In this document: in pieces, positions 5,129-60,870 of the stretch
Numbering within the stretch: the stretch's first letter is position 1
Layout of the letters: every line of letters starts with the position of its first letter
Notes under the pieces: model-generated
Told to the model about the DNA's origin: nothing
Databases searched by the model: none
The model's input: only the letters and a program-made list of their open reading frames with translations
Origin: a virus
Reading direction: 5' to 3' (one strand)
DNA length: 64,000 bases
Virus record (IMG/VR): IMGVR_UViG_3300033153_006411
Span: 19,135 to 83,134 of that record
Made by a program: the position numbers and the translations under genes

Positions 5129-5902
5129 TTAGTCAGATCGTTGGGTTTTCATTAAACCAAATGTTTCTAGGGTTCGGGCTCCAATATCAAGTTCCCACCA
5201 TTTGAAACCGTTTCTATACCGATTTGGGTACTTATGATGGTTGTTGTGCCAACCTTCACCCGGAGCGAGCATGTTCACCCACCAGTTATTGGTACTAGAG
5301 TCCGCTGGTCTGAGGTCATAAGTTCGGTATCCAAACATATGACTGATAGCGTTGACGTGGCTATATGCATGAAATGCAAAAACCGCAGGTAGACAATAAC
5401 CAAATACCATCAATAATGGATCGATCAAGAATAACAATCCCGCCCATGCGAACAGTATCTTGAAGTAGTGTTGTTGGCAGAACCTAACATGAGGGTTCTT
5501 CATTAAATCCCGAACCATTCCCTTTGGAATTTCAAATGGGTTCCATAGATGGAAGTACGCTCGCACACCACCAAGGATTTTTGGCGAGTGTGGGTCTTTC
5601 TCGGTATCACAATACGCGTGATGTAAACGATGGGTACCAGCCCACCCCATTGGCGTTCCGCCAGTAGCCAAACACCCACTGTAGATCATCAGAACCTCAA
5701 ACCACTTGTATGTGGTGAAACTCTTGTGGGCGAGATAGCGATGAAAACCAACACTGATACCGATTGATCCGATAACACAGTACCAGAATGCATATCCAGC
5801 AGCCCACATCCACCATGACCCATATATGAATGCGGGAATTAATGCAAGGTGATTCAGTATGTGAAGAATTCGTAGTTTGTTTGAAAAGTTTAGCTCAGGC
5901 AT
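5129..5902 (-). CDS. Membrane fatty-acid (acyl-CoA type) desaturase
   Basis: 257 residues. It carries the three histidine boxes of the di-iron membrane desaturases: HRYLAH (54-59), HRLHH (91-95) and HNNHH (219-223), with hydrophobic segments between them. Known enzymes put a double bond into acyl chains in the inner membrane. It overlaps the upstream oxygenase-like gene by 13 nt, so they form one minus-strand operon. Together with the phage acyl carrier protein (20815) and PLA2-like protein (62868) it suggests host-lipid remodelling, which is inference. Confidence 0.9.
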   Translation of the reverse strand: MPELNFSNKLRILHILNHLALIPAFIYGSWWMWAAGYAFWYCVIGSIGISVGFHRYLAHKSFTTYKWFEVLMIYSGCLATGGTPMGWAGTHRLHHAYCDTEKDPHSPKILGGVRAYFHLWNPFEIPKGMVRDLMKNPHVRFCQQHYFKILFAWAGLLFLIDPLLMVFGYCLPAVFAFHAYSHVNAISHMFGYRTYDLRPADSSTNNWWVNMLAPGEGWHNNHHKYPNRYRNGFKWWELDIGARTLETFGLMKTQRSD

Positions 5903-8634: not shown

Positions 8635-9981
8635 ATGAAAACGATTCCAATAGGACCATCAATAGTGATGATGGTCGGTCCTTCTGGGGCTGGCAAGAGT
8701 ACATTGATAGAAAGGCACTTCAACTCGCGTGAAGTCATTTCTACCGATGCTCTGCGCGTGGAATTTACCGGCGACAAGCGTCGGCAAGATAAGGACGATG
8801 AGGTGCTGGCCGAGGTCAGTCGCCGTGTCGAAGCGAAAATTAATGTCGGGCAGCGCGTTGTTATCGACGCCACCCACGTGCGCGACCAAGATCGTCGCCG
8901 CTCACTCGAACTCGGACTGATGCTGGATGTCCCAATAACCTACTTGGTGGTGAACCGGTCGGTTGAATCCAAAATGCAAAAAGCAGGTTGGAGAAAGGAC
9001 ATTTACGTTAAGAAGCTCACTAGCGGAAAACTTGTTAGCCTCATCGAGGCACACGAAGATACCTTCGTAGCCAACGAACACAAAATTCTTGCCGGTGACA
9101 GTCAAGGTAAGAAAGTCACGGTTATCGATACTCGCGTGGAAGAGTTCAAAGTCGCCCGCGAACTATCACGGGAAAATCCGGTTGAACAGTTGATATCGAG
9201 TGGTTTCAATCGCGTGCGTGTCGTCGCTGACGTGCACGGAAATCTGGAATCATTTCGTAAGGCTATCGACGTACCCGAGGACACCTTCCTGTTGTTTTTG
9301 GGAGACCTATTGGACTACGATGTCCGTGGTATCCAGATTGTAGAACGTGTGTACAAAATGGTTCAAGAAGGCCGTGCTATCACTCTTCGTGGTAATCACG
9401 AACGGAAGATTGCGAACTGGGTTGTCAAGGAGCGTGGTAACGGTTTCGAAGGGAGTATCACTTCCGGCAACGACTTCACTGTTAATATGGTTAAGGCTAT
9501 GACGCCAGCGCGTCGTGCTTTGTGGGAACGAAGGTTCCTAGCTCTGGTTGACCTGTCTCCTGATTGGATACAACTGGATCGGTTTCTATTCGTTCACGGT
9601 GCAGCACACCGCTCTATTTGGGATGATACATTATTCCGTGCAGAGGAAGAATCGAAGCGTATGGCCATGGCCATGTTCGGTGAGTCCACAGGCAAGACCA
9701 TCGGCGGTTACCCTGAGCGGTTGTACAACTGGGTTGATGATATTCCCACCCGACACACCGCTGTCGTTGGGCATGCCGTACTGTCAACCGAGGAGCCATT
9801 AACCAAAACCAATGACAAGGGTGGTAAGGCTATTTTCCTTGACACTGGTTCCTCGAAGGACATAGATGACTTCGGTCGCGGTCCTGCTGTTCGTGGACAC
9901 CTGTCATGGATGGAACTGAGCATTGGGGCTTTGTCACGCAATGGCAGCTATGTGGTGTTCGATGCATTTGGTCGGGACTGA
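8635..9981 (+). CDS. Polynucleotide kinase-phosphatase (Pnkp-like)
   Basis: 448 residues with two catalytic domains. An N-terminal P-loop kinase has GPSGAGKST (15-23). A C-terminal calcineurin-like phosphatase has DVHGN (199-203), GDLLDYD (223-229), GNHE (253-256) and GHAV further on. This order matches bacterial and phage Pnkp-type RNA end-healing enzymes, which phosphorylate 5'-OH ends and remove 2',3' phosphates so ends can be ligated. The RNA ligase-like gene at 11968 is the natural partner, but its motif I is altered. Confidence 0.88.
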   Translation: MKTIPIGPSIVMMVGPSGAGKSTLIERHFNSREVISTDALRVEFTGDKRRQDKDDEVLAEVSRRVEAKINVGQRVVIDATHVRDQDRRRSLELGLMLDVPITYLVVNRSVESKMQKAGWRKDIYVKKLTSGKLVSLIEAHEDTFVANEHKILAGDSQGKKVTVIDTRVEEFKVARELSRENPVEQLISSGFNRVRVVADVHGNLESFRKAIDVPEDTFLLFLGDLLDYDVRGIQIVERVYKMVQEGRAITLRGNHERKIANWVVKERGNGFEGSITSGNDFTVNMVKAMTPARRALWERRFLALVDLSPDWIQLDRFLFVHGAAHRSIWDDTLFRAEEESKRMAMAMFGESTGKTIGGYPERLYNWVDDIPTRHTAVVGHAVLSTEEPLTKTNDKGGKAIFLDTGSSKDIDDFGRGPAVRGHLSWMELSIGALSRNGSYVVFDAFGRD

Positions 9982-10327
9982 AAAACCACACAACCAACGT
10001 CGCGTATGGTTTGCATACGCGATGTTGGTTTTAATGAACATCATCGACGTGGTGTTCACCCGCACAGCCCTCTTCGTGAACACCACTGAAGCCAATCCCG
10101 TTATGAACCACATGTACCAGAACTTCGGTATATGGGGTATAATTGCCGTGAAGATATTTTTCCTGACATTACTCGGATTCACGATTAAACACCTCCCACA
10201 ACTACATGCAGGTTACCGAACAGTATTTTATTGCGCAGTTGGAATCTACGGATTACTGGCTGCTTACCACGCATACTGGTTATTCGGAATAGACCCCCGA
10301 TGGATAAGTAATATACACTTTGGATAA
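9962..10327 (+). CDS. Small multi-span membrane protein (DUF5658-like)
   Basis: About 121 residues from the ATG at 9962, which overlaps the end of the kinase-phosphatase gene by 20 nt. Three hydrophobic segments are visible, including LVLMNIIDVVFT with the charged pair seen in DUF5658-type proteins. No enzyme motif is present. Other in-frame starts are possible, so the N-terminus is uncertain. Confidence 0.65.
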   Translation: MHLVGTEKPHNQRRVWFAYAMLVLMNIIDVVFTRTALFVNTTEANPVMNHMYQNFGIWGIIAVKIFFLTLLGFTIKHLPQLHAGYRTVFYCAVGIYGLLAAYHAYWLFGIDPRWISNIHFG

Positions 10328-10342
10328 TTGGAGAAATTAATT

Positions 10343-11968
10343 ATGCTACGTACAAAATCATCAAGTTGGTTCATTCCATTCTGCTTTGTCGGAGCGTTGA
10401 TAGGTATAATTCTCACGACCGGTCACTCTCCTGCCGCCCAACTCCGCTACGACACCAGTTCTCAACTGAATTACGGCGAACAATTCCAACGGGTACTCGA
10501 TGCAATACGTGGCAATAGCGTTAATGCCGAGGCAGTAAAATCAGAGGAAGATTTATTCAATATTGCCGTCGATGCCATTTTGGAAAAAATTGGTGATAAG
10601 CACGGAAGATATTTTTCCGCTGAAGAATACCAACGGTTACAAGGCGACCTTCGACCTGCAAATTATACCGGTGTGGGGATTCAAATTGCTCCCGGCGCAG
10701 GTGGTGCCATTATTCTCAACATATTTGACAATTCTCCATTGCATAACATGGGCGTTAGAGTAGGTGATTTAATCACCGCTGCTGGTTCTCTGGGTGAACC
10801 GATGGTTGAATACGATCCAGAAGACCTGATGGTAATCGTAACCGCAATTAAAGGACGGGCAGGGACGGATGTTATATTAAACACCAGACGTGGAACTCGG
10901 AACCTTCCGCCTATTACTGTTCCACGAATACAGACTAGAAATCAATACGTGTATATGAAACGTTCCGAGACCGGAGTTCTCACAATACGAGTGACACAGT
11001 TTTCCGGTTCAGTCATCGGTGATATCAAATCTATGCTATCAGATCGAGGGTGGTTAGGTAGAAACGACGTGCTGGATACGAGTATTATCAAAGGTGTGGT
11101 TTTGGATTTGCGGGGTAATCCCGGTGGTATATTGGGTCAAGCGGTATACGTTAGTGATTTGTTTCTCCCAAAGGACGTATCAGCAGTTCGCGTCATCGAG
11201 CGCCCCGAAGTTGAAGGCGGACCGGCTATGGCGTATAATTACCTAACTGCTGACGAAAGAATGTTCCCTGTTGATATTCCACGAGTAATATTGATAAACG
11301 GCGGTTCGGCGTCTGCATCGGAAATCGTTGCCGGAGCAGTACAAACACATGCCGAAGGTCTCATCATGGGTATTAAATCCTACGGTAAAGGTTCGGTGCA
11401 AACTGTCATTGATTTGCCCGGAGGAACCGGCATTAAAACCACCTCGGCTATCTACTTTGCGGGTGGCACCATGGAAATCGATGGTATCGGAGTAATGCCT
11501 GATGCTGTAGTTCTTCAACCCGACCCTATCGGACTGAGTGCCGACGACAAGAGTTTCAATGGTCACCTTATAAAGATTTCAATGGACCCCGAAATGGATC
11601 ACCAATTGAATGTGGCTCATACTTACATCAATGCATTTATCAGTGGTGAGCATGTATTGGACGTACCGGAATCACGACAGGCTGCGGAAAACAAAGCACA
11701 CGGTGCTGAAACCAAACTCATAAACATTTGCGACCAACGGGGACTTCGGGGTTGTCCACCAGTGGATATCACATTATTCGAAAACATTGATCACGGTTCG
11801 TTTTTATCAGATACGGATGCTGCGGGTTGGATGTGTTACCCAGACGAAGGAGAAACCGAGTGGGACGACATGTCATTTCTGGATGGCTACGGCATAAGTG
11901 ATTTATTCAGCCTTTCTTTATCGGGCCAAATGTGTCCAAATGACGAAATAACATTTACGTTGGAATAA
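10343..11968 (+). CDS. C-terminal processing (tail-specific) protease, S41 family
   Basis: 541 residues. An N-terminal hydrophobic anchor (residues 10-30) is followed by a PDZ domain (GVGIQIAP... GVRVGDLITAAG), then the S41 core with DLRGNPGG and the dyad Ser in NGGSASASE (near 322) and Lys in YGKGS (349). Bacterial CtpA/Prc enzymes cut tagged or periplasmic proteins; the anchor suggests this one acts outside the cytoplasm. The ATG at 10343 follows TGGAGAA. Its stop overlaps the RNA ligase-like start (TAATG). Such proteases are uncommon in phages. Confidence 0.88.
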   Translation: MLRTKSSSWFIPFCFVGALIGIILTTGHSPAAQLRYDTSSQLNYGEQFQRVLDAIRGNSVNAEAVKSEEDLFNIAVDAILEKIGDKHGRYFSAEEYQRLQGDLRPANYTGVGIQIAPGAGGAIILNIFDNSPLHNMGVRVGDLITAAGSLGEPMVEYDPEDLMVIVTAIKGRAGTDVILNTRRGTRNLPPITVPRIQTRNQYVYMKRSETGVLTIRVTQFSGSVIGDIKSMLSDRGWLGRNDVLDTSIIKGVVLDLRGNPGGILGQAVYVSDLFLPKDVSAVRVIERPEVEGGPAMAYNYLTADERMFPVDIPRVILINGGSASASEIVAGAVQTHAEGLIMGIKSYGKGSVQTVIDLPGGTGIKTTSAIYFAGGTMEIDGIGVMPDAVVLQPDPIGLSADDKSFNGHLIKISMDPEMDHQLNVAHTYINAFISGEHVLDVPESRQAAENKAHGAETKLINICDQRGLRGCPPVDITLFENIDHGSFLSDTDAAGWMCYPDEGETEWDDMSFLDGYGISDLFSLSLSGQMCPNDEITFTLE

Positions 11969-12702
11969 TGTCGAAGTTCCCAACAATCAAGACAATCGAC
12001 GACGTACTGCCGTTCGTCAAGCATCACGAAGAGTTCACCGTGACTGAACATCAATGGGGTATATCAATTGATTACCAGACACCAGATGTAACCACGTTCA
12101 ATACCCCACAGGCGAGAGAATGTCGCGGCATAAAATTCCGCTTGGACGGTAGTCTTCTAGCTCGCCCTTATCACAAGTTCTTCAATATCGGTGGTTCGCG
12201 AATGCGCACTGAAGCATTGATTGCGTCAGGGCGCTTCGACAACAAACACACTATCCTCTATATGCCGCATGGCTCGATGATTCACCCAATCGTTCATAAT
12301 GACACGGTGTTCTTTTGCACCCGCTCGGGGATCACTGACGTAGCTGAGCAAGCACTCAGGTTTGTCACGCCTGTCCACGACTCACAGAACGCCGGACCGT
12401 GGTGTACGGATTTCTGCTATGATTTGGCAAAATCAAATCTCACAGCAATTTTTGAATGGTGCCCCCAAGTTGAACCCGTTCAAAAATATCCAGCAAACAG
12501 GCTAGTACTGACCGCTATCCGTACAAATCAAACTGGGGAATACCTCAGCTATGACAGCATGCGAGCACTAGCCGGTTCGTACTATATTCCTATGATCGGT
12601 TCCTTCGATGGCGACTGGACAGACGTTGCGAAAAATGAAAGTTATGTCATTCGGTGGAATGATGGTATGATGGGTAAACTCAGAAATAATCGCGGAAAAT
12701 GA
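11968..12702 (+). CDS. RNA ligase 1-like protein with substituted catalytic lysine
   Basis: 244 residues. The upstream signature ECRGIKF..LLARPYHKFFN and later motifs (IFEW, then YVIRWNDG..GKLR) match T4 Rnl1-type ligases. Motif I, normally KxDGS with the AMP-accepting lysine, reads M99-P-H101-G-S here, so both the Lys and the Asp are missing. T4 Rnl1 uses Lys99. Read literally, it cannot form the ligase-AMP intermediate. It may be a binding or sensor protein, or the ligase step may be supplied elsewhere. It lacks a separate C-terminal specificity domain. Confidence 0.75.
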   Translation: MSKFPTIKTIDDVLPFVKHHEEFTVTEHQWGISIDYQTPDVTTFNTPQARECRGIKFRLDGSLLARPYHKFFNIGGSRMRTEALIASGRFDNKHTILYMPHGSMIHPIVHNDTVFFCTRSGITDVAEQALRFVTPVHDSQNAGPWCTDFCYDLAKSNLTAIFEWCPQVEPVQKYPANRLVLTAIRTNQTGEYLSYDSMRALAGSYYIPMIGSFDGDWTDVAKNESYVIRWNDGMMGKLRNNRGK

Positions 12703-16356: not shown

Positions 16357-18396
16357 TTAGGCATTTGCCAGAATACCAAAACAAACACGAGCCAATGTAG
16401 AACCCGTATCAGGGGTGGTGTATGTCATTATGAGTTCATCACCTGCGCTAAGGACTAGTGGACCGAGAGCCGCCACGACACCAGTAAGTGATCCGATGGC
16501 GAATGTTATCGTTCCTATTGACGTACCGGGAGCAGTACCACCGGGTGATGCAACATGGAGATCGAATGTCGCCGGAGAAACCGAGGCCGTTGTCAGGGCA
16601 TCACAATAAGCAAAATGTCCACCGGTTCCCAAAGTAATAGTTCGTGGAATCGCCCAACGATGCACGTTTAGACCGGGAGTGGCAGCTACGAGCGAACTTC
16701 CCAAATATGCATTCAGATCATATGGGTGTAGTGCGGCAGCAATTTCGGTATCAACATAATTCATGGTGGCAGCGTCTTGCGCTATTACGGGATCAAGTAC
16801 GTTACCGATTGCAAAGGCACCAGCGTTGATAGCACCAGTCATGGTACCACCAGCCAGTGCTAGGAATGGACCAATAGCAGCAATTCCATCATCAACGTAT
16901 TTCTTGTTCGGCATATCATTATTAGCCAGAACCAGAGCTTCGTAAGATGCCGTTGATGTGGACAATGTACCATCGTCCTCAACCGTGAATCGTGTTGCAC
17001 CACCAGTAGCCATGTTGATAGCACCATGAGGGCTACCTGTACCAGCCGTCAGAGTGATATCGCCAGCAGGAACACCAGTAGCATTGGCAGTAGATATATT
17101 GAAGGCACCAGAGCCACCAGCACCAGAACCAGTGATCGCACTGATATCACCACCAAATTCTCCACCGCCACCACCGCCGTCACCTGCGATAATAGCCAAA
17201 TCACCACCATCACCAGACCCACTACCAGCACCGGATGTAATGGTTAAGGCACCACCAACATCACCATTACCACCAGCACCAGCATTCAAAAGCAATGCAC
17301 CACCTACGCCGGATGTTGTGCCACCGGCACCAGCGGTTACATCGATAGCACCACCAGCGGCTATGCCAAGTGAATCACCAGCAGTAATGTTAACATCACC
17401 ACCAACACCACTCAGTTGCGGCACGCCACCGAGGATGTTAACATCACCACCATCACCAGTACCAGTACCACCAGCACCACCACTAATAGAGACAGTACCA
17501 CCAGTACCAGCCGAAGCATCACCTTCACCACCGGTTACGGAAATTGCACCACCAGAGTTTGCCGCACCAACACCAGCACCCGCGACTAAGCTAATAGGAG
17601 CACCATCCGCAGCAACCGATGCCCCGGTAATAATATTGATCTCGCCGCCAATCCCTGATGTGGAAGCACCACCAATTAAGTTTATAGCCCCACCAGTATT
17701 TGTGGCACCAAGACCAGCCGTAATCGTTACATCACTACCGGGGTTGCCACCGCCAGAATCACCAGCCGAGATAAAAACAGGTCCACCAATACCAGCGGTA
17801 CCATTACCAGCAGCAAACAGTAGACTACCACCGTTACCGAAGGAAGCACCACCTGCACCAGCGATTATATTAATAGGACCACCAGTAGTGTTAGTTCCGC
17901 CACCACCAGTTGTGATATTGATAGCACCACCAGCGAAGGCTGCATCACCTGCACCAGTTGTTACCGTGAATCCGACACCAGCGTTCGAGGAAGCACCGGA
18001 GGGGGTTGTGATTCCGAATCCACTCGTTGACCAGTTAAGTACCGAAGCAGGCATGGTATAGGTGCCAGAATTATCACCCATTGTGAATGCGATAATGTTA
18101 TCATCGACACCCGTGAAATTTTCAACGTAGATTTCGGTGTTGAGGTCGCCGTCTTCTAGTTTGGACAGGGTAACACCAGCAAGAGTAGCCAAGATAGCCC
18201 ATACACCATTATACGCTTCAAAGTCGCCGAGGTCGGTGTTGAACCGCATCATGCCGTTGGCTGGTGAAGCAGGGCGTTCAGACGTGTCGCCGACTGGGAT
18301 AAGTGTAGCAGTGGTTCCGGGCAAATCTACGAGGGTTTCACCCGACGCGTAAATGGTAGGCCAGAGTGTATCTTTCCAATGGTCTTGTTGTGTCAT
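16357..18396 (-). CDS. Glycine-rich tail-fibre protein (paralogue A)
   Basis: 679 residues. The N-terminal ~125 residues (MTQQDHWKDTLWPTI...) match paralogue B closely, as does the shaft segment around GGDVNILGGVPQLSGVGG. The C-terminal ~250 residues differ: a linker with KKYVDDGIAAIGP and a beta-rich tip ending VCFGILANA. Conserved base and shaft with unlike tips is the usual pattern of receptor-binding diversification. Confidence 0.85.
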   Translation of the reverse strand: MTQQDHWKDTLWPTIYASGETLVDLPGTTATLIPVGDTSERPASPANGMMRFNTDLGDFEAYNGVWAILATLAGVTLSKLEDGDLNTEIYVENFTGVDDNIIAFTMGDNSGTYTMPASVLNWSTSGFGITTPSGASSNAGVGFTVTTGAGDAAFAGGAINITTGGGGTNTTGGPINIIAGAGGASFGNGGSLLFAAGNGTAGIGGPVFISAGDSGGGNPGSDVTITAGLGATNTGGAINLIGGASTSGIGGEINIITGASVAADGAPISLVAGAGVGAANSGGAISVTGGEGDASAGTGGTVSISGGAGGTGTGDGGDVNILGGVPQLSGVGGDVNITAGDSLGIAAGGAIDVTAGAGGTTSGVGGALLLNAGAGGNGDVGGALTITSGAGSGSGDGGDLAIIAGDGGGGGGEFGGDISAITGSGAGGSGAFNISTANATGVPAGDITLTAGTGSPHGAINMATGGATRFTVEDDGTLSTSTASYEALVLANNDMPNKKYVDDGIAAIGPFLALAGGTMTGAINAGAFAIGNVLDPVIAQDAATMNYVDTEIAAALHPYDLNAYLGSSLVAATPGLNVHRWAIPRTITLGTGGHFAYCDALTTASVSPATFDLHVASPGGTAPGTSIGTITFAIGSLTGVVAALGPLVLSAGDELIMTYTTPDTGSTLARVCFGILANA

Positions 18397-18421
18397 GGTC
18401 CGTTCCTGTCAATGTACTACT

Positions 18422-18428
18422 TATTTAC
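18422..18428 (-). promoter_or_regulatory. GTAAATA putative late promoter element
   Basis: GTAAATA on the minus strand 25 nt before the fibre start at 18396. The divergent tmRNA promoter starts 8 bp away on the other strand. Confidence 0.55.
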
Positions 18429-18435
18429 GCGATAC

Positions 18436-18466
18436 TTGACACCAAACGGGATTGGGTATATAAATA
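18436..18466 (+). promoter_or_regulatory. tmRNA promoter (TTGACA-N17-TATAAATA)
   Basis: TTGACA at 18436-18441, a 17-nt spacer and TATAAA at 18459-18464, continuing as TATAAATA. The predicted start is near 18471, just before the first helix of the tmRNA acceptor piece. The same architecture precedes tRNA clusters at 52107, 57451, 58226 and, on the minus strand, 42697. Confidence 0.8.
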
Positions 18467-18470
18467 AGAT

Positions 18471-18801
18471 TACAGTTGCTTGAGCGAACCTTGGACGCTC
18501 TGCGGACGCGGGTTCGAATCCCGCCACCTCCACCACTATGGGGGTGCACCGGTTTCGACGTGGTGATGAAAGACAAGTAGTGAGACTGTCGGGTAAGATA
18601 TCCCCGAAAAGATTCAATTAAACTATCAGCAAACGATAGCTTCTATGATGGAGAGTACGCTCTCGCTGCGTAAGCAGGAGGCAGATTCTCAAGCGGTCTA
18701 AACAACCGACACATCCGAGGTGTAATGAGCCTTGTTACCAAAGTACTAGAGAAGGGCAGTTGGCGTTGACCGTGAATACGGACCACTGCCCTTCTCGTTT
18801 T
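18471..18801 (+). ncRNA. ssrA: tmRNA, circularly permuted (two-piece type)
   Basis: The acceptor piece comes first. The T arm (stem GCGGG/CCCGC, 18508-18524) and acceptor strand CACCTCC + ACCA (18525-18535) closely match the E. coli tmRNA 3' end. After only CTAT comes the 5' acceptor strand GGGGGTG (18540-18546) and the signature GGTTTCGACG. All seven acceptor pairs form with one G-U. P2 pairs form across the pieces: CAGT/ACTG and CTTG/CAAG. The tag frame 18629-18673 reads ANDSFYDGEYALAA-stop, a normal proteolysis tag. No T arm follows the tag, so this is not a standard linear gene. It rescues stalled ribosomes. Confidence 0.93.
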
Positions 18802-18802
18802 C
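18749..18802 (+). terminator. Terminator / 3' helix of tmRNA
   Basis: GAGAAGGGCAGT (18749-18760) pairs with ACTGCCCTTCTC (18785-18796), followed by GTTTTCT. A smaller hairpin CCGT/ACGG sits inside. It ends the tmRNA transcript and may remain as the last helix of the coding piece. Confidence 0.8.
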
Positions 18803-18867
18803 TACCCCTCCGAAACTCCTAAAATGATAAGTACTAATGTGAAAAAATTTACACAGGAGATTCAGTG

Positions 18868-19173
18868 ATGGCTCAAGTCAGTTATGCCACACGTAGGAAG
18901 ATTCGTATCATCGAAAAGGAACTGGGAGCCGACTGGGAAACTCAGCATGCCGGTAAATCGATTGACGCGATCTACAACATCGTTATGGGTGACTTCCGCA
19001 AAAATCTATTTTGCAAAGTAGACCCAGAGACCAAAACAAAATTAGATGAAATGGTCGAATATAATGACATGCAAATGTCATCTTTAGTTGAAAAACTCGT
19101 CCGTGAGGAGTATGATAGGTATACACATGATCGAGATGCACGTGCCGACCATCTAGCATCTCAATTTGCCTAA
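18868..19173 (+). CDS. Small DNA-binding-like protein (ribbon-helix-helix type, tentative)
   Basis: 101 residues. The segment KTKLDEMVEYNDMQMSSLVEKLVREEYDRY resembles the helical part of ribbon-helix-helix repressors. CAGGAG lies about 8 nt before the ATG. It is the first gene after the tmRNA on the plus strand. No experimental family match can be claimed. Confidence 0.6.
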   Translation: MAQVSYATRRKIRIIEKELGADWETQHAGKSIDAIYNIVMGDFRKNLFCKVDPETKTKLDEMVEYNDMQMSSLVEKLVREEYDRYTHDRDARADHLASQFA

Positions 19174-35761: not shown

Positions 35762-37678
35762 ATGAAACTTCTGGAATTCTTTAGAACCATTCGGGAGAAT
35801 GACTCTAACGGTACCGGAAAGTTCGTTGGAGCAAGACTAACCCGAGAATCAGAGCGCGACATCACCCGATGGATGCGCGATAACGGGTTACGTAAGAAAG
35901 AACCACGCGCCCGCATGCACATCACCGTCGTTGGTGATAAGGAACATGACTTCGATTGGAATCCCGCTACATTCAAACCACCACTCGAAATCGACCCCGC
36001 TTCGTACAAGATAGAAAAATTCGATCACGGTTCCATCGTGCTGTCATTCTCCGTCCCTGAACTTGAGAAGCGACACGAACAGGCAGTCGAGGATTATGCC
36101 ATCCAGTGGGATTTCCCTACGTATCAGCCACACATCACATTAAGCTACGACCCAACCGACCTGAATGATGTTGAGCGACTGCTGACACCAACGTTCCCGA
36201 TGTATGTTTCGCATGAGTACGAACAACCATGGTCGTTTACCGAATCAGACACAGCGTCAGAGCGTCGCCGTAGCGCACGACTGGACGAAGCCTTCCTAGC
36301 TGAACGAAACCTGATGAATGCTCCACTGGCCAAAAAGTGGGCTGGTCATGCTGCCGAGACTCTGTTTGGTTCTGAAGTTGGTGCTGCATTGTTACCGATG
36401 GGTCTCGCTGATCCCGCACTGAAGTGGGCACATCGTGCACTCGCACGATACTTCGTTAATGATATGCCCGCATCACGGCTCCTCTCCTTTACTTCGGGGG
36501 ATGATAACGGAACGTGGCGACCACCGGCAACCGACTTCAATCAACAAGGAATCGAAGGTCATGGTGAAATTATTACACCACAAGATGCGGCTTATGGCAT
36601 CACCAGTGGACACCAAGGTCTCCGATCCATTACGGTTCCTCCTTGGGTTCCGGCTACATTGGAACGGGGTGATGAATTATATTTCTTGGATCAGCGGGGA
36701 GTAAACCATCTTGTTAATAGCAGCATGTTCGGTGCCGTCAAAGACTGGTTCCGTTACTTGGCGAACAACCACCCAGAAAAATTAAAGACCGGAGCCCTGA
36801 ACCGATTGAGTTGGGAAGAGGCTGTGGAATCTGCTGTTGAGTGGCATCAGGCTATGCGAGCGGCAGAAACTAGCGACGACGAAGAAAATGAAAATCACCG
36901 CGTGATGTACATCGATTACGGCAATGGTATTGCGTGGTGGAAACTAATTGGCGAAACCTGCCTCACCCGTGAAGGTAAACTGATGGGTCATTGTGTTGCC
37001 GATTACGTGCACGACGTGGAAAGTGGTCATTCAGTTATTCTGTCATTGCGAGATGAGAAAAATAATCCCCATGTAACAGTAGAACTTAATGATATTGCCT
37101 ATACCAAAGATGCTCCCAAGGCTGGTTATATCATCAACCAAGTGAAGGGAAAGGAAAACAAACCACCAGTTGAGAAGTACTGGAAATATGTTGACGCACT
37201 GATAAAGAAACTCGATGCTGATGGGCTTGAACTTTCCGCCAGTGGCGAAGGTCCATATGACTTATCCGAATGTGAAATCGAAATAATTGGTCCCCTGTTG
37301 GTCAGAATATCACCTCCGCTTCATAACATAACATCACAATTCCATCTAATTCAGCAACATGCTGATGGAAGTCAAAAAGATGTAATGGAAGGAAGTAAAG
37401 GAACTGATTTGTTTGTAGTATTTCATACATTAAGAACAACATATAATATCTTTCCAACCGGCGAAGCCGAACAATACTTAAAGTGGTTGCTACTCAGGGA
37501 CGGTGAATGGGAAATTGATACGGAAACCATCCCAGACGTTAGAGGTGAATATGATTTTGTACCTACCCATATAAATATAAAGGTACCCAAGATCGAATAT
37601 GAAGTCCTTGCTGGTAATCCAAAGGATTTCAAATACGACCTCAAACACGAAATCGCGGTGCATCTAAATGAGGAGTAA
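35762..37678 (+). CDS. Acb1-like 2H phosphoesterase fused to PcfJ-like domain
   Basis: 638 residues. The N-terminal ~150 residues have the two HxT motifs of 2H phosphoesterases: MHITVV (His53/Thr55) and PHITLSY (His124/Thr126), with a DFDWNP and SVPELEKRH segment between them as in phage anti-CBASS Acb1 proteins, which cleave cyclic di- and trinucleotide signals. A linker region follows. Near 400-480, GKLMGHCVADYVHDVESGHS..SLRD and QVKGKENKPP resemble PcfJ-like proteins. The remaining C-terminal part is unassigned. If active, the N-domain would blunt CBASS defence. Confidence 0.7.
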   Translation: MKLLEFFRTIRENDSNGTGKFVGARLTRESERDITRWMRDNGLRKKEPRARMHITVVGDKEHDFDWNPATFKPPLEIDPASYKIEKFDHGSIVLSFSVPELEKRHEQAVEDYAIQWDFPTYQPHITLSYDPTDLNDVERLLTPTFPMYVSHEYEQPWSFTESDTASERRRSARLDEAFLAERNLMNAPLAKKWAGHAAETLFGSEVGAALLPMGLADPALKWAHRALARYFVNDMPASRLLSFTSGDDNGTWRPPATDFNQQGIEGHGEIITPQDAAYGITSGHQGLRSITVPPWVPATLERGDELYFLDQRGVNHLVNSSMFGAVKDWFRYLANNHPEKLKTGALNRLSWEEAVESAVEWHQAMRAAETSDDEENENHRVMYIDYGNGIAWWKLIGETCLTREGKLMGHCVADYVHDVESGHSVILSLRDEKNNPHVTVELNDIAYTKDAPKAGYIINQVKGKENKPPVEKYWKYVDALIKKLDADGLELSASGEGPYDLSECEIEIIGPLLVRISPPLHNITSQFHLIQQHADGSQKDVMEGSKGTDLFVVFHTLRTTYNIFPTGEAEQYLKWLLLRDGEWEIDTETIPDVRGEYDFVPTHINIKVPKIEYEVLAGNPKDFKYDLKHEIAVHLNEE

Positions 37679-42477: not shown

Positions 42478-42565
42478 TGGTGCCCCAAGAGGGGATCGAA
42501 CCCTCACGCCCTTTCGGACAATAGATTTTGAATCTACCGCGTCTACCTGATTCCGCCACAGGGGC
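42478..42565 (-). tRNA. tRNA-Leu (CAA)
   Basis: 88 nt with encoded CCA. Anticodon loop TTCAAAA in stem GTAGA/TCTAT, class II variable arm TGTCCGAAAGGGCG and T arm GAGGG-TTCGATC-CCCTC. The acceptor has one T-T mismatch at pair 6. Confidence 0.92.
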
Positions 42566-42568
42566 AAT

Positions 42569-42654
42569 TGGTACGGATAAGAGGAGTCGAACCTCCACGC
42601 CCTTTCGAGCACAACGACCTCAACGTTGCGTGTCTACCATTCCACCACATCCGC
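42569..42654 (-). tRNA. tRNA-Leu (GAG)
   Basis: 86 nt with encoded CCA. Anticodon loop TTGAGGT in stem CAACG/CGTTG, and a variable arm closely matching the neighbouring tRNA-Leu. It is first in the minus-strand tRNA transcript. Confidence 0.92.
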
Positions 42655-42666
42655 ATAGTGTAATTC

Positions 42667-42697
42667 TATTTATAACTCCAGTTGGTCAGGAAGTCAA
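42667..42697 (-). promoter_or_regulatory. Stable-RNA promoter (TTGACT-N17-TATAAATA)
   Basis: On the minus strand: TTGACT at 42697-42692 and TATAAATA at 42674-42667. It drives the three tRNAs and the structured element, divergently from the hairpin array. Confidence 0.8.
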
Positions 42698-42744
42698 GTT
42701 ATGATATTCACTGGGCAGTGAATAATGCTCTACGGTCGAATAAG

Positions 42745-42773
42745 TTGACAGTTATTTTTAAGTGTGATACGTT
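42745..42773 (+). promoter_or_regulatory. Promoter of two-loop RNA array
   Basis: TTGACA (42745-42750), 17-nt spacer, TACGTT (42768-42773). The predicted start near 42780 is about 10 nt before the first array unit. A separate ATTCACT/AGTGAAT inverted repeat lies just upstream (42706-42723). Confidence 0.7.
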
Positions 42774-42789
42774 TAAGCCTATGAATCAT

Positions 42790-43222
42790 GATGTGGGTGG
42801 AAGACCAGCCCGATACCGTCGGTTGACCTTTCAATTGCAGTCACCGCCCGCATCAACTTATTACGGTAGCTTGGAAGACCGATGGCGCACAGTCGTTTAG
42901 ACCCTTCGATCAATGTCACCAAGCCGCCAATTTATCAGAGGTAGTTGGAAGACCTGAAAATTTTTGTCGCGTGACCCTCTCGTGAATGTCACCAACTACC
43001 TCAACTTATTACGATGCGTGCGAAAGACCTCGTAAACCAAGTTGTATGACCAATGGCAAATAGTCATCGCTTGCATCAATTTATTACGGTAGCTCGGAAG
43101 ACCAGTGTTGTAGTGTCGAATGACCTCTTCAAGATCGTCACCGAGCTATCAACTTATTAAGGTAGTTGGAAGACCCTATTGGTGTAGTCAAATGACCGGA
43201 TACGTTTAGTCGCCGACTACCT
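42790..43222 (+). ncRNA. Array A: six tandem two-loop RNA units
   Basis: Units begin at 42790, 42865, 42938, 43013, 43088 and 43160, each 62-65 nt, separated by linkers close to AAYTTATTN. Each folds as an outer stem of 9-11 pairs, AAGACC-N11-GTC, a 3-4 nt joint, (T/A)GACC-N11-GTC(A/G), then the returning stem. All twelve loops are exactly 11 nt and differ from each other. Stems vary in sequence but stay paired, for example GATGTGGGTGG/CCGCCCGCATC and GAGGTAGTTGG/CCAACTACCTC. G-U pairs form on the plus strand. I know no described RNA family with this plan. Confidence 0.87.
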
Positions 43223-43299
43223 TTACCAAATCGGCACGTGCTGATAAGCCGGTGGACTAATCCACCATCATATTGTTCATTGGGAACAGGAGTATGAAG

Positions 43300-43899
43300 A
43301 TGGAAAACAATACAATCACGACCGTCAATGATCTCATCCGCATCGCGGATGATAATCATCCCACAGACACCAATGCCGCTGTAGCTGCTGTCATCAAAGC
43401 GATGAAGAAACACAAGCAAAAAGATGACATGCAGGAGTTGCTTATCTCCGCAGGAATCAAGTTGCTTCTGAACGGCATTCGTTCCGAGAACAAATTCAAA
43501 CCCTCACCTGTTGACGGGGTCACCACATTCGAGAGCCATAAAAACAAGTCCGACACCAAAGGCCACAGCACCATCCGCCGTGCCACTCTTAAAACCACAG
43601 AACAGCGTGAAGGTACACGTAATGACATCATCGAGACCATACTCGATGAGGTTTATGGCTCCAACGGATACCGCATGAGCATCGGAAATGCAACCAAGCC
43701 GGTACTCCGCCACTGGGCTAAAATCGAAGGCAAGCAGGCGATTGGTCATACCCGCAACTATGATTTGTTCACTGCCATCGCAGATAGACTGCCCGATGAC
43801 ACCACCAAGGTTGTTGAGTCACTGGACGCTGACGACGTACTGTCTATCAAGTGTAAGACTCATGCAGTCGCCAAGGGTGAAACTCATGCAGCCGCGTAG
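43300..43899 (+). CDS. Hypothetical protein inside the RNA-array locus
   Basis: About 199 residues. AGGAG lies 7 nt before the ATG at 43300; ATG 43294 is too close to it. The N-terminal third is helical, a basic linker follows (KNKSDTKGHSTIRRATLK) and the C-terminal part has IIETILDEVYGSNGYRM and TRNYDLFTAIADRLPDD. I recognise no family and see no RuvC-like DEDD residues. It overlaps the next gene by 14 nt, so the two are expressed together and lie between the two hairpin arrays. Confidence 0.75.
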   Translation: MENNTITTVNDLIRIADDNHPTDTNAAVAAVIKAMKKHKQKDDMQELLISAGIKLLLNGIRSENKFKPSPVDGVTTFESHKNKSDTKGHSTIRRATLKTTEQREGTRNDIIETILDEVYGSNGYRMSIGNATKPVLRHWAKIEGKQAIGHTRNYDLFTAIADRLPDDTTKVVESLDADDVLSIKCKTHAVAKGETHAAA

Positions 43900-44683
43900 C
43901 CAAACGGTGGAGACGCTTAAGAAGATGTGTCACTTTCGACGTGTCCATCTTCGACAGCGCAACGCTCTTGTCCTTTGTATTCAAGGCTTGATACGTTCAG
44001 AACTGGGCTTTCGATCCATCGGTCCAAATGATGAAACCGCCACGGAAAAGAAAGCACGGGAAAAGGTGAACAAGGAAGCCAAGACTCGTGGTGATAGAAT
44101 TATTTCATCATTGAATGGTAAGAAGCTCGCCAAACCACTAGTCGATATCGACCAGAGCATTTATGAGTATATGCTCATCAACTGCAAAGGAATACTCGAT
44201 GGTATCGATATCATGAATTCTGACCTGAAGTCTAAGGACAAGGCCATCGAGAAGAAAGCCAAAGAGTTGCCAGAGTGTGAATGGTGGACTAGCCATAAGG
44301 GTCTGTCAGCTAAAGGTCTTGGTTTGCTAACAGGTGACGCTGGTGATATCGCCCGCTTCGACAAGGAGTCGCAACTATGGAAGCGCATGGGTATGGCAGT
44401 TATCGATGGTAAGCGTCAACGACGTGTGGCTGGCAATGCTGCGAAGGCAATCGAGCATGGATACAACTCCGACAATCGCGCCACCATGTTCACCATCGTG
44501 TCCAGTCTCAACATGGAACGCAACAAGGAATGCTACGCTGACCATCCGTGGTTCAACCTAGCTCGTGATTACAAGGAACGTAAACTGGCTGAAGGTGATA
44601 GACCATGCATTGCCGAAGCACGCGCCAACCGTAGAATGGGAAAGCGAATACTCCGTGATCTCTACTTGCAGGTACATGCATGA
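43886..44683 (+). CDS. IS110-type Transposase_20-like protein
   Basis: About 265 residues from the ATG at 43886, preceded by AAGGGTGA. After a helical, coiled segment (near 90-130), GLSAKGLGLLTGDAGDIARF then ESQLWKRMGM follows the Transposase_20 pattern of IS110 enzymes (helix-hairpin-helix glycines, GD...RF, QL....G). A C-terminal region NRATMF...HPWF...YKERK..GDRP...RRMGKRILRDLY matches the order seen at IS110 C-termini. The IS110 N-terminal RuvC-like DEDD domain is absent and I cannot place the catalytic Ser. IS110 recombinases use a two-loop bridge RNA; flanking arrays make a guide role attractive but unproven. Confidence 0.65.
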   Translation: MQPRSQTVETLKKMCHFRRVHLRQRNALVLCIQGLIRSELGFRSIGPNDETATEKKAREKVNKEAKTRGDRIISSLNGKKLAKPLVDIDQSIYEYMLINCKGILDGIDIMNSDLKSKDKAIEKKAKELPECEWWTSHKGLSAKGLGLLTGDAGDIARFDKESQLWKRMGMAVIDGKRQRRVAGNAAKAIEHGYNSDNRATMFTIVSSLNMERNKECYADHPWFNLARDYKERKLAEGDRPCIAEARANRRMGKRILRDLYLQVHA

Positions 44684-44690
44684 AGTAACC

Positions 44691-44973
44691 TGATGCGAGA
44701 GGAAGACCTATCTCGACTAGTCGTATGACCGTCCAGCCGCCGTCACCTCTCGCGTCAATTTATTCCGGTAGCACGGAAGACCAATCGATAAATGTCGAAT
44801 GACCTTGTGAACTTTGTCGCCGAGCTACCAATTTACCCGATGACTTGGAAGACCCGTAGAGCATAGTCGAATGACCACAGTTCGCCAGTCCCAAGTCATC
44901 AACTTATTTCGGTAGCTCGAAAGACCTTATGAGGCGAGTCAAATGACCCATACTGAGCAGTCATCGAGCTACC
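44691..44973 (+). ncRNA. Array B: four tandem two-loop RNA units
   Basis: Units begin at 44691, 44767, 44839 and 44911 with the same AAGACC-N11-GTC / TGACC-N11-GTC core and the same linkers as array A. All eight loops are 11 nt. Outer stems are again compensated, such as GCGAGAGG/CCTCTCGC, GATGACTTGG/CCAAGTCATC and GGTAGCTCGA/TCGAGCTACC. It starts 8 nt after the Transposase_20-like stop, so it is probably the 3' part of that transcript. The last unit ends 4 nt before a convergent gene. Confidence 0.87.
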
Positions 44974-44976
44974 AAC

Positions 44977-45420
44977 TTACCCGCGTGCTTCGAGTGCTGC
45001 CTTCAGAATCTCCATAGAACGCTCGTAGCGCCGTTTAAGGCTGCTAGTGACACCTTCACGCATGTTGGACATGTTATCGGCTAGCTTGACCTTCAGAGCG
45101 CCCACAGGGGCTTTCCGAGCCATGTTCTCTATGCGCTCGATGTAGGTTCCAGAGAAATTATTCTTGTCCATCCATTGGATGACCTCGATCACTGTTGGAC
45201 TGTATCCCAACTGCTGTAAGTCTTGGATGGTGTAGTCGGTATCCTCGGTAACGTCGTGCAACAGGGCGGCTAGCTGTTCGTCAGCGGTGCCGTTGAATAG
45301 GGATGCCACGGTGGCGGCTACCTGAACAGGGTGCTTCCAGTATTCTTCACCCTGCTTATCGGTTTGACCTTCATGGGCTTTCTGAATGAAGCGGACGGTA
45401 TCTTCGAAGGTTGGGGACAT
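44977..45420 (-). CDS. HD-domain phosphohydrolase (MESH1/RelA-hydrolase-like)
   Basis: 147 residues. The HD metal site is intact: His30 in WKHPVQVA, His55-Asp56 in LLHDVTEDTD and Asp in VKLADNMSN. This set is typical of (p)ppGpp or NADPH-type hydrolases of the MESH1/SpoT group. A phage copy could remove alarmones, which is inference. It is convergent with array B. Confidence 0.83.
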   Translation of the reverse strand: MSPTFEDTVRFIQKAHEGQTDKQGEEYWKHPVQVAATVASLFNGTADEQLAALLHDVTEDTDYTIQDLQQLGYSPTVIEVIQWMDKNNFSGTYIERIENMARKAPVGALKVKLADNMSNMREGVTSSLKRRYERSMEILKAALEARG

Positions 45421-45761
45421 TATGGGCGTCGCGGTCCACCGGCTTTTTCTTGCTCGGCGCTTTGAAATTTCTGTTGCTGTTGGTTTTGCTGCTGTTGTTG
45501 CATCGGCTGCTCGACCTTCTCTTTATGAAACTCACCGAGTGCTTTATTCCGATTCGCAATAAGACCTAGAACTCCCTTACGATGCGAGGGCGAGAGAGTA
45601 CGAGCAAGGACACGACCAAGGTTACTAAGAAACTGCGTCTCGCTTTTCAGCAGAGTATCGAGGTCTTCGTATGGTGACATATCGGTAGCTTCTGCTTCAG
45701 TGAGCAAACCGGCACGCCGTTTGATGTCTTCAATTTCCTTGTCCATAGGGGTATTTATCAT
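45420..45761 (-). CDS. Small hypothetical protein with Gln-rich tail
   Basis: 113 residues. The C-terminus holds a poly-Gln stretch (QPMQQQQQNQQQQ). The start at 45761 is the only well-placed ATG. It overlaps the HD gene start by 1 nt. Confidence 0.6.
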   Translation of the reverse strand: MINTPMDKEIEDIKRRAGLLTEAEATDMSPYEDLDTLLKSETQFLSNLGRVLARTLSPSHRKGVLGLIANRNKALGEFHKEKVEQPMQQQQQNQQQQKFQSAEQEKAGGPRRP

Positions 45762-45773
45762 GATTGATATTTC

Positions 45774-45802
45774 TTGACAAAAGTTCAATAACCTGCTAAG
45801 GT
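45774..45802 (+). promoter_or_regulatory. Sigma70-like promoter
   Basis: TTGACA, 17-nt spacer, TAAGGT in the recurrent TTTCTTGACAAAAGTTC context. It drives the operon from 45870. Confidence 0.8.
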
Positions 45803-45869
45803 ACGCGTATTGGCTAGGAAAGTCAAATGCAAATGCCACGGATTAGCACAAAGCGAGATGGAGAGAAAT

Positions 45870-46259
45870 ATGAATAAAACTTTAACCCCTAATGATGTCC
45901 GAGAGCTTACCGGTACCGGTGGCGAATTCTTCCGTATTGGATTCAACAAACGCCCCAAGCCTCTCGGCAAACGCGCACTAGCTGCGGGTCAGGTACAGCC
46001 TACTAAAGGTGAGTACCGTGAGATGACTTGCCGCTTTGGCGTCCAGAAAGACCTGTCTGACGGCCCGAAGGGCGGTAAGAAGGCTTACGACTTCGACGAG
46101 AAGAACGTTCTCGGCGTATGGATTCCCGAGCAGGATCGCCGTGAAGACGGTAAGGACAAAGGCTACCGCGTTGTTCCTTGTGAGAACGTTACGGTTCTCA
46201 AGGCTCACGGTAAGGTCTGGTCTGTTGAGAGCGGCGTACTCGTCGAGCAAGACCAATGA
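45870..46259 (+). CDS. Conserved phage protein
   Basis: 129 residues, ATG after GGAGAGAAAT. KGEYREMTCRFGVQKDL and NVLGVWIPEQD.GYRVVP look like a WYL-/SH3-like beta fold seen in large phages. A DNA- or RNA-binding role is possible. It overlaps the next gene (ATGA). Confidence 0.6.
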   Translation: MNKTLTPNDVRELTGTGGEFFRIGFNKRPKPLGKRALAAGQVQPTKGEYREMTCRFGVQKDLSDGPKGGKKAYDFDEKNVLGVWIPEQDRREDGKDKGYRVVPCENVTVLKAHGKVWSVESGVLVEQDQ

Positions 46260-46432
46260 GTCCCGAAAGACGAAAGATTTTTGATGACCGCGTTCTGGAA
46301 GTAACCGGAAAGCCCGCGAGCGAATTTGATCCTCGATGGGATGCACTGGAAATTCTGGGCTTGCCGGTACTCCAAGAAGACGGTACCGTCGAATGGCAAA
46401 TGCCGAATACTGATGGCAGGGTGTTCCATTGA
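46256..46432 (+). CDS. Very small hypothetical protein (58 aa)
   Basis: Reads MSPERRKIFDDRVLEVTG and ends PNTDGRVFH. The overlaps at both ends (ATGA, TTGA) support it as a real operon member. Confidence 0.55.
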   Translation: MSPERRKIFDDRVLEVTGKPASEFDPRWDALEILGLPVLQEDGTVEWQMPNTDGRVFH

Positions 46433-46782
46433 ACGCCGTCATCGACGCCGTTGCGAAACTCCCAAAGTGGGCGTTGATTATAATCATGGCAGCGCCCGCT
46501 TACATCGCCTTTGGCTACATGGCGTACAATAAGGAACCAACCAAGCAAGTTATTGTTGGTCACAACGAAGTCGCCGTAGTGATCGACCCAGACTTAACGA
46601 ACTGCGAAGAACGCGGAATCGTTAGTGAAGTCGCTTCTGGTTGTGTCTTAAATCGCATGCTCACCTCTGGAATCCACGGGATACCGGAATCGCATCGTGT
46701 AGAAGTTTACACATTGGAAGTTCTGAACTTCGAATTTCGAATAAATTCGGCGATAGTAAAGGACGTGGGGGTGACGCAATGA
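46429..46782 (+). CDS. Membrane-anchored hypothetical protein
   Basis: 117 residues with a TTG start coupled to the preceding stop; an ATG at 46486 would cut into the transmembrane helix (ALIIIMAAPAYIAFGYM). Two Cys follow in the soluble part. Confidence 0.5.
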   Translation: MNAVIDAVAKLPKWALIIIMAAPAYIAFGYMAYNKEPTKQVIVGHNEVAVVIDPDLTNCEERGIVSEVASGCVLNRMLTSGIHGIPESHRVEVYTLEVLNFEFRINSAIVKDVGVTQ

Positions 46783-47207
46783 ATGCCTTTGAAAAAATCA
46801 AAAAACTAGACGACGCGACGGAAGCCGCGAAGGATTCTGTTCAGACTGTACACGAAACCACATTCGAAGCAATCCTGATATCCGAAGGAATGAAAGCCTT
46901 CGTCTTATGGGCGAACGCATTCCCCAAACGCCATCTTCGATTCGTCTCTGGTATGGGAACATCCACTTTTGCATGTCCCTCCATAGACAACAGTTGCTTT
47001 CTCACGGACATTGATGATTATTGTGAAGGTGTTATAACATGTGGATATTCTGCGAAGGTGGGGGAAATGATTAAGCCAATAATCGACTTTTACAAATTGT
47101 TCTGGAGCAGTGACATGTACCTGTACCCTGCCATGCACGACTTCCTTTACAATCCGGTAACGCGCACGGTCGAGTACCATGACCAAATAATCTACTTGGA
47201 CAAATAA
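46779..47207 (+). CDS. Hypothetical protein
   Basis: 142 residues, acidic, start overlapping the preceding stop (ATGA) and end overlapping the next start. No family recognised. Confidence 0.55.
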   Translation: MNAFEKIKKLDDATEAAKDSVQTVHETTFEAILISEGMKAFVLWANAFPKRHLRFVSGMGTSTFACPSIDNSCFLTDIDDYCEGVITCGYSAKVGEMIKPIIDFYKLFWSSDMYLYPAMHDFLYNPVTRTVEYHDQIIYLDK

Positions 47208-47458
47208 TGAACGACGCCTATATTGTTGGCTACATCGATACGAACGGTGAGCTACAACATTTCAAATTCGACTTCCATGATTTGCCCCTCGGGTCAGGTA
47301 TCCGTGCTGCACGATGCGACGAATTCGACAGGCTCAAGGAAGCGTTCAGGGGACAGGGAATAAAGTTCGGATGCTGGACACTCGAAGACTGGGCGCGAGG
47401 TTGGGGTAGAGCCTCACTCCTGAAACCCAAAGCGAACTTCGCCAAAGGGGTAGGATAA
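47207..47458 (+). CDS. Small hypothetical protein
   Basis: 83 residues, Trp-rich centre (CWTLEDWARGWGR). TAATG coupling to the preceding gene. Confidence 0.55.
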   Translation: MNDAYIVGYIDTNGELQHFKFDFHDLPLGSGIRAARCDEFDRLKEAFRGQGIKFGCWTLEDWARGWGRASLLKPKANFAKGVG

Positions 47459-47478
47459 GGAAATAAATTCAAACCTCC

Positions 47479-47508
47479 TTGACATCCCACCAGAAAATAG
47501 TATATAGT
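47479..47508 (+). promoter_or_regulatory. Promoter of tRNA-Tyr transcript
   Basis: TTGACA at 47479, an 18-nt spacer and TATAGT at 47503-47508. The transcript would start near 47515. Confidence 0.75.
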
Positions 47509-47515
47509 ATACGTA

Positions 47516-47667
47516 GATCACAACATCTAGCACACTATGTGGTGTAATCATCGGAAAGGATTCGAGACCTGAATGATGATGGCGTAGATGGTAAGCACTT
47601 CGGTAACACTTACCAACGCTAATGATGGGCAAATCGGGGACCGACCCTGACAAGTTAGTGATCAACT
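47516..47667 (+). other. Structured leader upstream of tRNA-Tyr
   Basis: About 150 nt with no gene. It holds ATCATC/GATGAT, GCGT-agat-GGTAAG paired to CTTACC-a-ACGC, TCGGGG-accga-CCCTGA and AAGTT/AACTT hairpins in a row up to the tRNA 5' end. It may be a separate small RNA released by RNase P. Confidence 0.45.
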
Positions 47668-47668
47668 T

Positions 47669-47756
47669 GGATGAATTGAGTAGTGTGGTGTGCTTCAGCC
47701 GGTTGTAACCCGGTACCCTTATAGGGTTGTAGGTTCGATTCCTACTTCATCCACCA
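47669..47756 (+). tRNA. tRNA-Tyr (GTA)
   Basis: 88 nt, CCA encoded. Anticodon loop TTGTAAC in stem GCCGG/CCGGT, a class II variable arm ACCCTTATAGGGT and T arm GTAGG-TTCGATT-CCTAC. Confidence 0.93.
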
Positions 47757-47763
47757 AACACCG

Positions 47764-47789
47764 AAAGCTCCTGTAATGGGGCTTTTTTT
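47764..47789 (+). terminator. Rho-independent terminator
   Basis: AAAGCTCC-tgtaat-GGGGCTTT followed by a T-run, just after tRNA-Tyr. Confidence 0.8.
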
Positions 47790-47793
47790 GTGC

Positions 47794-47822
47794 TTGACAC
47801 AAAGCTCATATCCTGTTAAAAT
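47794..47822 (+). promoter_or_regulatory. DNA ligase promoter
   Basis: TTGACA, 17-nt spacer, TAAAAT, 27 nt before the ligase ATG. Confidence 0.8.
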
Positions 47823-47849
47823 CGTCTGATTAGAAATAGGAGAGAGCCT

Positions 47850-49322: not shown

Positions 49323-49552
49323 TGAGCACATTGGAATCTGATTTCTGTAAATTCGAAGGTCCAGACTCGGGGATGGTGACTTGCATCAAGTTGGGTGTGG
49401 AATGGCCCCCACCTGAGAAGATTAATTTGAACGGCACCGAGTACCAGCGTGTACAGATGTCGCAACTGACTGATGAACAGGCAGCGGAGATGACCTTTAT
49501 TGCACGCGGGGCGATGTACACCCCAACGCTTGACAAAGGTGATTTGAATTAA
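49322..49552 (+). CDS. Small hypothetical protein
   Basis: 76 residues, co-translated with the ligase. No family recognised. Confidence 0.55.
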   Translation: MSTLESDFCKFEGPDSGMVTCIKLGVEWPPPEKINLNGTEYQRVQMSQLTDEQAAEMTFIARGAMYTPTLDKGDLN

Positions 49553-49555
49553 TGC

Positions 49556-49584
49556 TTGACAGACTCAAGCAGACGTAGTAAGGT
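49556..49584 (+). promoter_or_regulatory. Promoter of small RNA
   Basis: TTGACA, 17-nt spacer, TAAGGT, predicted start near 49591. Confidence 0.75.
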
Positions 49585-49590
49585 ATATCG

Positions 49591-49675
49591 TATTGGAGAG
49601 ATACACAACGATTTAATGTCCCGATGGCATTACCCCCCTCTCCTCTCAAACTTCGCCATCGGGGCTCTTTTATTT
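49591..49675 (+). ncRNA. Terminator-ended small RNA with C/U-rich loop
   Basis: About 85 nt with its own promoter and no reading frame. The stem CCCGATGGC/GCCATCGGG (49620-28 with 49655-63) is followed by GCTCTTTTATTT and works as a terminator. Its 26-nt loop contains CCCCCCTCTCCTCTC, complementary to Shine-Dalgarno-like GGAGAG sequences, and one such GGAGAG lies near its own 5' end (49595-49600), so a folded and an open form are possible. Confidence 0.65.
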
Positions 49676-60500: not shown

Positions 60501-60870
60501 GTGCAGGCGTCCAGACTATCGCTCGACCCATCCCCTTTAGGTAAGTTTGGGAGAGAGGAAGTTCGGGACACCACAGTACAGGCTAGTGGAGAAATTCCAC
60601 CCGACATAATGTCGAGGACAAGTGAGATAGAGACAGACAGCCGATGGCCTTCGGGCACAGGCGATAGCTGGAAAGAGTGGGGTAAGAGCCCACAACGTGG
60701 CATGGCGACATGCGCGGAAGCAAACTCTAGCCGGTGCAACCCCAGACAGTTCTTATGACTCGGTACGACGAGGGACAGGTAGGGGGCAAAGATCGTCATG
60801 GGAACATGGCGGCAAGACGAATGATAGTCCTAGACAGAATCCCGGCTATCGGATGCCGTAAAGCACTTTT
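60501..60870 (+). ncRNA. rnpB: RNase P RNA (bacterial A type)
   Basis: The universal regions appear in order: GAGGAAGTTCGGGACACCACAG (P4 and CR I region, 60555-60576), AGACAGACAGCCGATGGCC, TGGAAAGAGTGGGGTAAGAG with its paired CCCAC, GCAAACTCTAGCCGGTGCAA, and AGACAGAATCCCGGCTATCGG (CR V, ending 60852). P1 forms by GGCGTCC (60506-12) with GGATGCC (60851-57), and outer GTGC/GCAC precedes a T-run. It would mature tRNA and tmRNA 5' ends with host RnpA. No phage RnpA gene is seen here. Confidence 0.94.

What the first reader, a model, noticed from the sequence alone, without database searches (positions are those of the whole stretch)
18471..18801. Phage-encoded circularly permuted tmRNA
The T arm and CCA end precede the tRNA-like 5' half by only 4 nt, and the tag ANDSFYDGEYALAA is intact. 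Permuted tmRNA genes are known in a few bacterial lineages. A phage copy with its own promoter and terminator would keep ribosome rescue running, or redirect tagging, during infection, and gives a clue to host lineage.
Basis: partly seen in the sequence, partly recalled or inferred. Interest (0 to 1): 0.88.

Follow-up and report, generated by a model that had tools for sequence, protein, structure and literature searches.

The report
Phage-encoded two-piece (permuted) tmRNA
A large, poorly known bacterial virus carries its own complete gene for tmRNA, the RNA that frees stalled ribosomes, in the rearranged two-piece form most like that of certain betaproteobacteria; such viral genes are already known, so this is a solid new example and not a new kind of system.

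Summary
Window 18472-18673 matches Rfam RF04321 (permuted tmRNA) over the full model at 101 bits (cut-off 47, E 1.7e-18). The CCA end (18535) is separated by CTAT from the 5' half (18540). The alanine determinant G3.U70, resume codon and tag ANDSFYDGEYALAA are intact; no second T arm was found downstream. The promoter (TTGACA-N17-TATAAATA) is one of four in the window, all directly upstream of stable-RNA genes (0.14 expected by chance). The flanks are phage DNA, and an identical gene lies in a second viral contig. The 4-nt linker with canonical T loop is the form found in Rhodocyclales betaproteobacteria (one with CTAT exactly); the beta Rfam model scores best of three lineage models (65.6 bits, below its cut-off of 84). 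The likely role is ribosome rescue with host SmpB and AlaRS; this is inferred, and no SmpB gene was found. Phage permuted tmRNAs were reported before (53 in a published survey), so this is a new member of a known kind. A more unusual feature of the same genome is a full-length RNase P RNA (60503-60863, 157.8 bits).

The parts
18436..18466 (+). promoter: TTGACA, 17-nt spacer, TATAAATA
   Evidence: Motif TTGA[CA][AT]-N15-19-TATAAA occurs 4 times in the window on both strands, each directly upstream of a stable-RNA unit (tmRNA, tRNA-Leu pair, tRNA-Glu operon, tRNA-Cys); 0.14 expected
18471..18535 (+). acceptor piece (tRNA-like 3' half): P2 strands, T arm, acceptor 3' strand, CCA
   Evidence: RF04321 alignment; coordinates; exact 5' end inferred from promoter position
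18508..18524 (+). T arm GCGGG-TTCGAAT-CCCGC
   Evidence: canonical T loop as in the beta type, unlike the alpha-type T loops
18536..18539 (+). intervening linker CTAT, expected to be removed during maturation
   Evidence: same 4-nt form in Rhodocyclales, exact CTAT in L149
18540..18748 (+). coding piece: acceptor 5' strand, D-loop region GGTTTCGAC, P2 strands, PK1-like stem, tag, downstream region; 3' end of the mature piece is inferred
18629..18673 (+). tag reading frame GCA...TAA, ANDSFYDGEYALAA
18749..18801 (+). 3' hairpin with 12-bp perfect outer stem followed by GTTTT, probable terminator
   Evidence: fold of 18740-18810 is -27.1 kcal/mol; not called by the consensus scan
60503..60863 (+). 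RNase P RNA (class A), possible maturation enzyme; its association with the tmRNA is inference
   Evidence: RF00010 157.8 bits, full model

Best explanation
It is a complete, circularly permuted tmRNA (ssrA) gene of betaproteobacterial type, carried by a large myophage and transcribed from the phage's own stable-RNA promoter. Inferred steps: the precursor folds so that the acceptor stem closes over an ACCA-CTAT loop; RNase P cuts before G18540 and a 3' processing activity trims to CCA at 18535, leaving two base-paired pieces. Host AlaRS charges the acceptor piece through G3.U70, and host SmpB delivers it to ribosomes stalled on broken mRNA during infection. Translation resumes at GCA 18629 and adds ANDSFYDGEYALAA, whose LAA end would direct the product to host proteases. 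Shown: gene structure, intact determinants, promoter class, phage context. Inferred: expression, processing, charging, rescue.
For: Full-length RF04321 match in the range of clear Pseudomonadota matches. Perfect 7-bp acceptor stem with G3.U70, A73 and CCA; 5-bp T arm; conserved GGTTTCGAC; resume codon and LAA-ending tag. Promoter family at four RNA genes. Phage context: sister contig L181/G051 carries the identical tmRNA together with baseplate, lysozyme, sigma-factor and virion genes. Beta type: RF01850 65.6 bits against 49.2 (cyano) and 42.8 (alpha); linker and T loop match Rhodocyclales; the tree groups it with them (support 84/78, long branch).
Against: No expression data. The RF01850 match is below its cut-off (65.6 of 84). 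The P2 connector is the weak part: one RF04321 P2 segment mostly mispairs, and a duplex energy test of the P2 strands was no better than shuffles. No SmpB gene in the 83 kb record or the sister contig, so host SmpB must be assumed. The only near relative is identical, so no conservation or covariation test was possible.
Confidence: 0.75

Rival explanations
1. A decoy: the phage tmRNA competes with host tmRNA for SmpB or AlaRS and inhibits or redirects rescue.
For: A tag-less tmRNA of mycobacteriophage DS6A inhibits endogenous tmRNA in E. coli (stated in PMC11915505). The phage tag is longer than the Rhodocyclales ANDERFALAA.
Against: The tag frame, resume codon and LAA end are intact, which a pure decoy would not need.
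Confidence: 0.12
2. A passive relic of host ssrA picked up by imprecise excision, since ssrA is a common integration site.
For: Known route for ssrA fragments in prophages (discussed in PMC9004378).
Against: The gene is complete, driven by the promoter class shared with other RNA genes of the phage, and diverged from bacterial copies (101 bits against 160-164 for four of the five bacterial genomes).
Confidence: 0.1
3. Assembly chimera or host contamination in a viral contig.
For: RNA genes are prone to contig joins.
Against: Same sequence and neighbourhood in a second viral record, which may come from a related sample; promoter shared with other RNA genes of the phage.
Confidence: 0.02

Closest known systems
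Betaproteobacterial permuted tmRNA (RF01850; Rhodocyclales such as Accumulibacter and Dechloromonas)
   Same: Acceptor stem CACCTCC/GGGGGTG, canonical T loop, 4-nt linker (CTAT in L149), 3' hairpin, AND...LAA tag
   Different: Longer tag (14 aa against 10), diverged P2 and coding piece, below the RF01850 cut-off
Melnitz-type phage two-piece tmRNA (PMC9004378) and other phage permuted tmRNAs
   Same: Complete permuted ssrA in a phage genome
   Different: The Melnitz copy is of alpha type and linked to a glutamine riboswitch; no riboswitch was found in this window
Alphaproteobacterial permuted tmRNA (RF01849)
   Same: Same permuted order
   Different: In the 21 alpha-type loci measured here (organisms unnamed; type judged from the T loop) the T loop is non-canonical and 19 linkers are 22-115 nt; this model scores 42.8 bits on the window
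Cyanobacterial permuted tmRNA (RF01851)
   Same: Same permuted order
   Different: Only a partial match, 49.2 bits

Membership tests
Permuted tmRNA (RF04321) | Acceptor/T-arm half precedes the 5' half in the gene | tested here: met
Permuted tmRNA (RF04321) | Score over the family cut-off, full model | tested here: met
   101 bits, cut-off 47
Permuted tmRNA (RF04321) | G3.U70, A73, CCA for alanine charging | tested here: met
   present in the sequence; charging itself not tested
Permuted tmRNA (RF04321) | Tag reading frame with stop and hydrophobic end | tested here: met
   ANDSFYDGEYALAA then TAA
Permuted tmRNA (RF04321) | P2 helix joining the two pieces | tested here: inconclusive
   outer ACAGU/ACUGU pairs; middle segment mispairs in the model; energy no better than shuffles
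Permuted tmRNA (RF04321) | Cleavage into two pieces | not testable with these tools
   needs RNA from infected cells
Betaproteobacterial lineage (RF01850) | Score over the family cut-off | tested here: not met
   65.6 bits, cut-off 84, though best of the three lineage models
Betaproteobacterial lineage (RF01850) | Short linker with canonical T loop | tested here: met
Functional trans-translation system | SmpB partner | tested here: inconclusive
   not in G000 or G051, both incomplete; host SmpB possible

The most novel reading that the evidence does not exclude
The phage carries both a permuted tmRNA that needs RNase P for maturation and its own catalytic RNase P RNA, next to a DEDD-type exoribonuclease gene and tRNAs, so it would supply its own processing of tmRNA and tRNAs during infection.
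Probability: 0.3. Interest if true: 0.7.

Novelty: new member of a known kind. Interest (0 to 1): 0.35.

Why it matters
It adds a betaproteobacterial-type example to the known phage permuted tmRNAs and gives a host clue for an otherwise isolated large phage. Its 4-nt linker makes a simple substrate for testing how RNase P separates the two pieces, and the phage's own RNase P RNA would let that be tested with phage components.

Tried and rejected
Similarity search of the tmRNA in annotated phages: no match. Similarity search of the RNase P RNA in annotated phages: no match. Standard promoter and terminator scan: none called; the -10 hexamer is TATAAA (the scan wants T at position 6) and the hairpin loop is long. 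Idea that the short linker is phage-specific: rejected, it is common in Rhodocyclales. Idea that the linker alone fixes the lineage: rejected, one alpha-type copy has 5 nt (L198). Idea that phages with permuted tmRNA commonly carry RNase P RNA: not supported, 2 of 50 records had only sub-threshold matches. Relatives by protein: only the identical sister contig. Thermodynamic support for P2: none.

Full report
Observation. The covariance model for permuted tmRNA, RF04321, matches 18472-18673 over its full length at 101 bits. In 299 Pseudomonadota genomes the same model gives a group of clear matches at about 97-163 bits and then falls to 65 or less, so the window score lies with the clear matches, at their low end. 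The gene order is T arm, acceptor 3' strand and CCA, the linker CTAT, acceptor 5' strand, D-loop region, P2 strand, PK1-like stem, tag, downstream region and hairpin. The acceptor stem is 7 of 7 paired, with G3.U70, the alanine identity element, and A73. The tag is ANDSFYDGEYALAA with a TAA stop. A permissive Rfam scan of 18380-18880 finds no second tRNA-like domain.

Weak point. The P2 connector is less clear than the rest. The outer pairs ACAGU/ACUGU (18472-18476 with 18585-18589) form, the middle segment of the model mostly mispairs, and GCUUG/CAAGU (18478-18482 with 18574-18578) is an alternative read by eye. A duplex energy test was no better than shuffled sequence.

Promoter and end. TTGACA-N17-TATAAATA lies at 18436-18466. 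The motif TTGA[CA][AT]-N15-19-TATAAA occurs four times in the window on both strands, all directly upstream of stable-RNA units: the tmRNA, the tRNA-Leu pair, the tRNA-Glu operon and tRNA-Cys; 0.14 are expected. The 3' hairpin has a 12-bp perfect outer stem followed by GTTTT; a consensus scan did not call it a terminator.

Context. The record is an 83 kb viral contig. A second viral contig, L181/G051, holds the identical tmRNA and extends further left, with baseplate, lysozyme, sigma-factor and virion proteins; one of its virion proteins is distantly like those of PA5oct-type and SCTP-2 jumbo phages. No SmpB was found in either record.

Lineage. Lineage models score 65.6 (beta), 49.2 (cyano, partial) and 42.8 bits (alpha), all below their cut-offs. 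A scan of bacterial genomes for permuted tmRNA with a canonical T loop and a 2-9 nt linker gave 38 loci, mostly Rhodocyclales where named, with 3-5 nt linkers; L149 (Accumulibacter) has CTAT exactly. Alpha-type loci (organisms unnamed; type judged from the T loop) have a different T loop and mostly long linkers. The tree puts the phage copy with the beta set (84/78) on a long branch. A betaproteobacterial source is likely; the present host is not shown.

Known or new. Phage permuted tmRNAs are published: 53 suggested two-piece tmRNAs among 18,146 phage genomes, 50 of them aquatic (PMC9004378). This is a new member of a known kind.

Mechanism. The best reading is ribosome rescue during infection using host SmpB and AlaRS, with maturation by RNase P and a 3' nuclease. 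The structure is shown; expression and function are inferred. The same genome encodes a full-length RNase P RNA, which makes phage-supplied maturation possible; no RnpA was found in the two incomplete records.

Noticed in passing
60503-60863: Full-length class A RNase P RNA (RF00010, 157.8 bits, cut-off 100), just after ORF 60177-60488 and before an Rv2179c-like exoribonuclease gene (60936-61469) and Arg/Gly/Thr tRNAs. P4 with a bulged U reads intact by eye. No similar sequence in annotated phages.
   Followed up: partly
L122, L124, L130, L133, L134, L136: RNase P RNA genes next to or inside tRNA arrays of viral contigs; L130 and L136 also hold a standard tmRNA. Some may be bacterial contamination.
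   Followed up: partly
L138:1501-1856: Sub-threshold full-length RNase P RNA candidate (59.1 bits) in record G046, which also holds a permuted tmRNA (L071).
   Followed up: partly
8635-12702: Kinase-phosphatase-like protein (AAA_33 plus Metallophos) and a T4 Rnl1-like RNA ligase, a possible RNA repair pair; a Peptidase_S41 gene lies between them.
   Followed up: no
35762-37678: Protein with an Acb1 anti-CBASS domain and a PcfJ-like region.
   Followed up: no
745-1575 and 5129-5902: Sulfotransferase and fatty acid desaturase genes in the phage.
   Followed up: no
42478-62179: Twelve tRNA genes by ARAGORN, including two tRNA-Glu(ttc) copies at 52230 and 52399.
   Followed up: no
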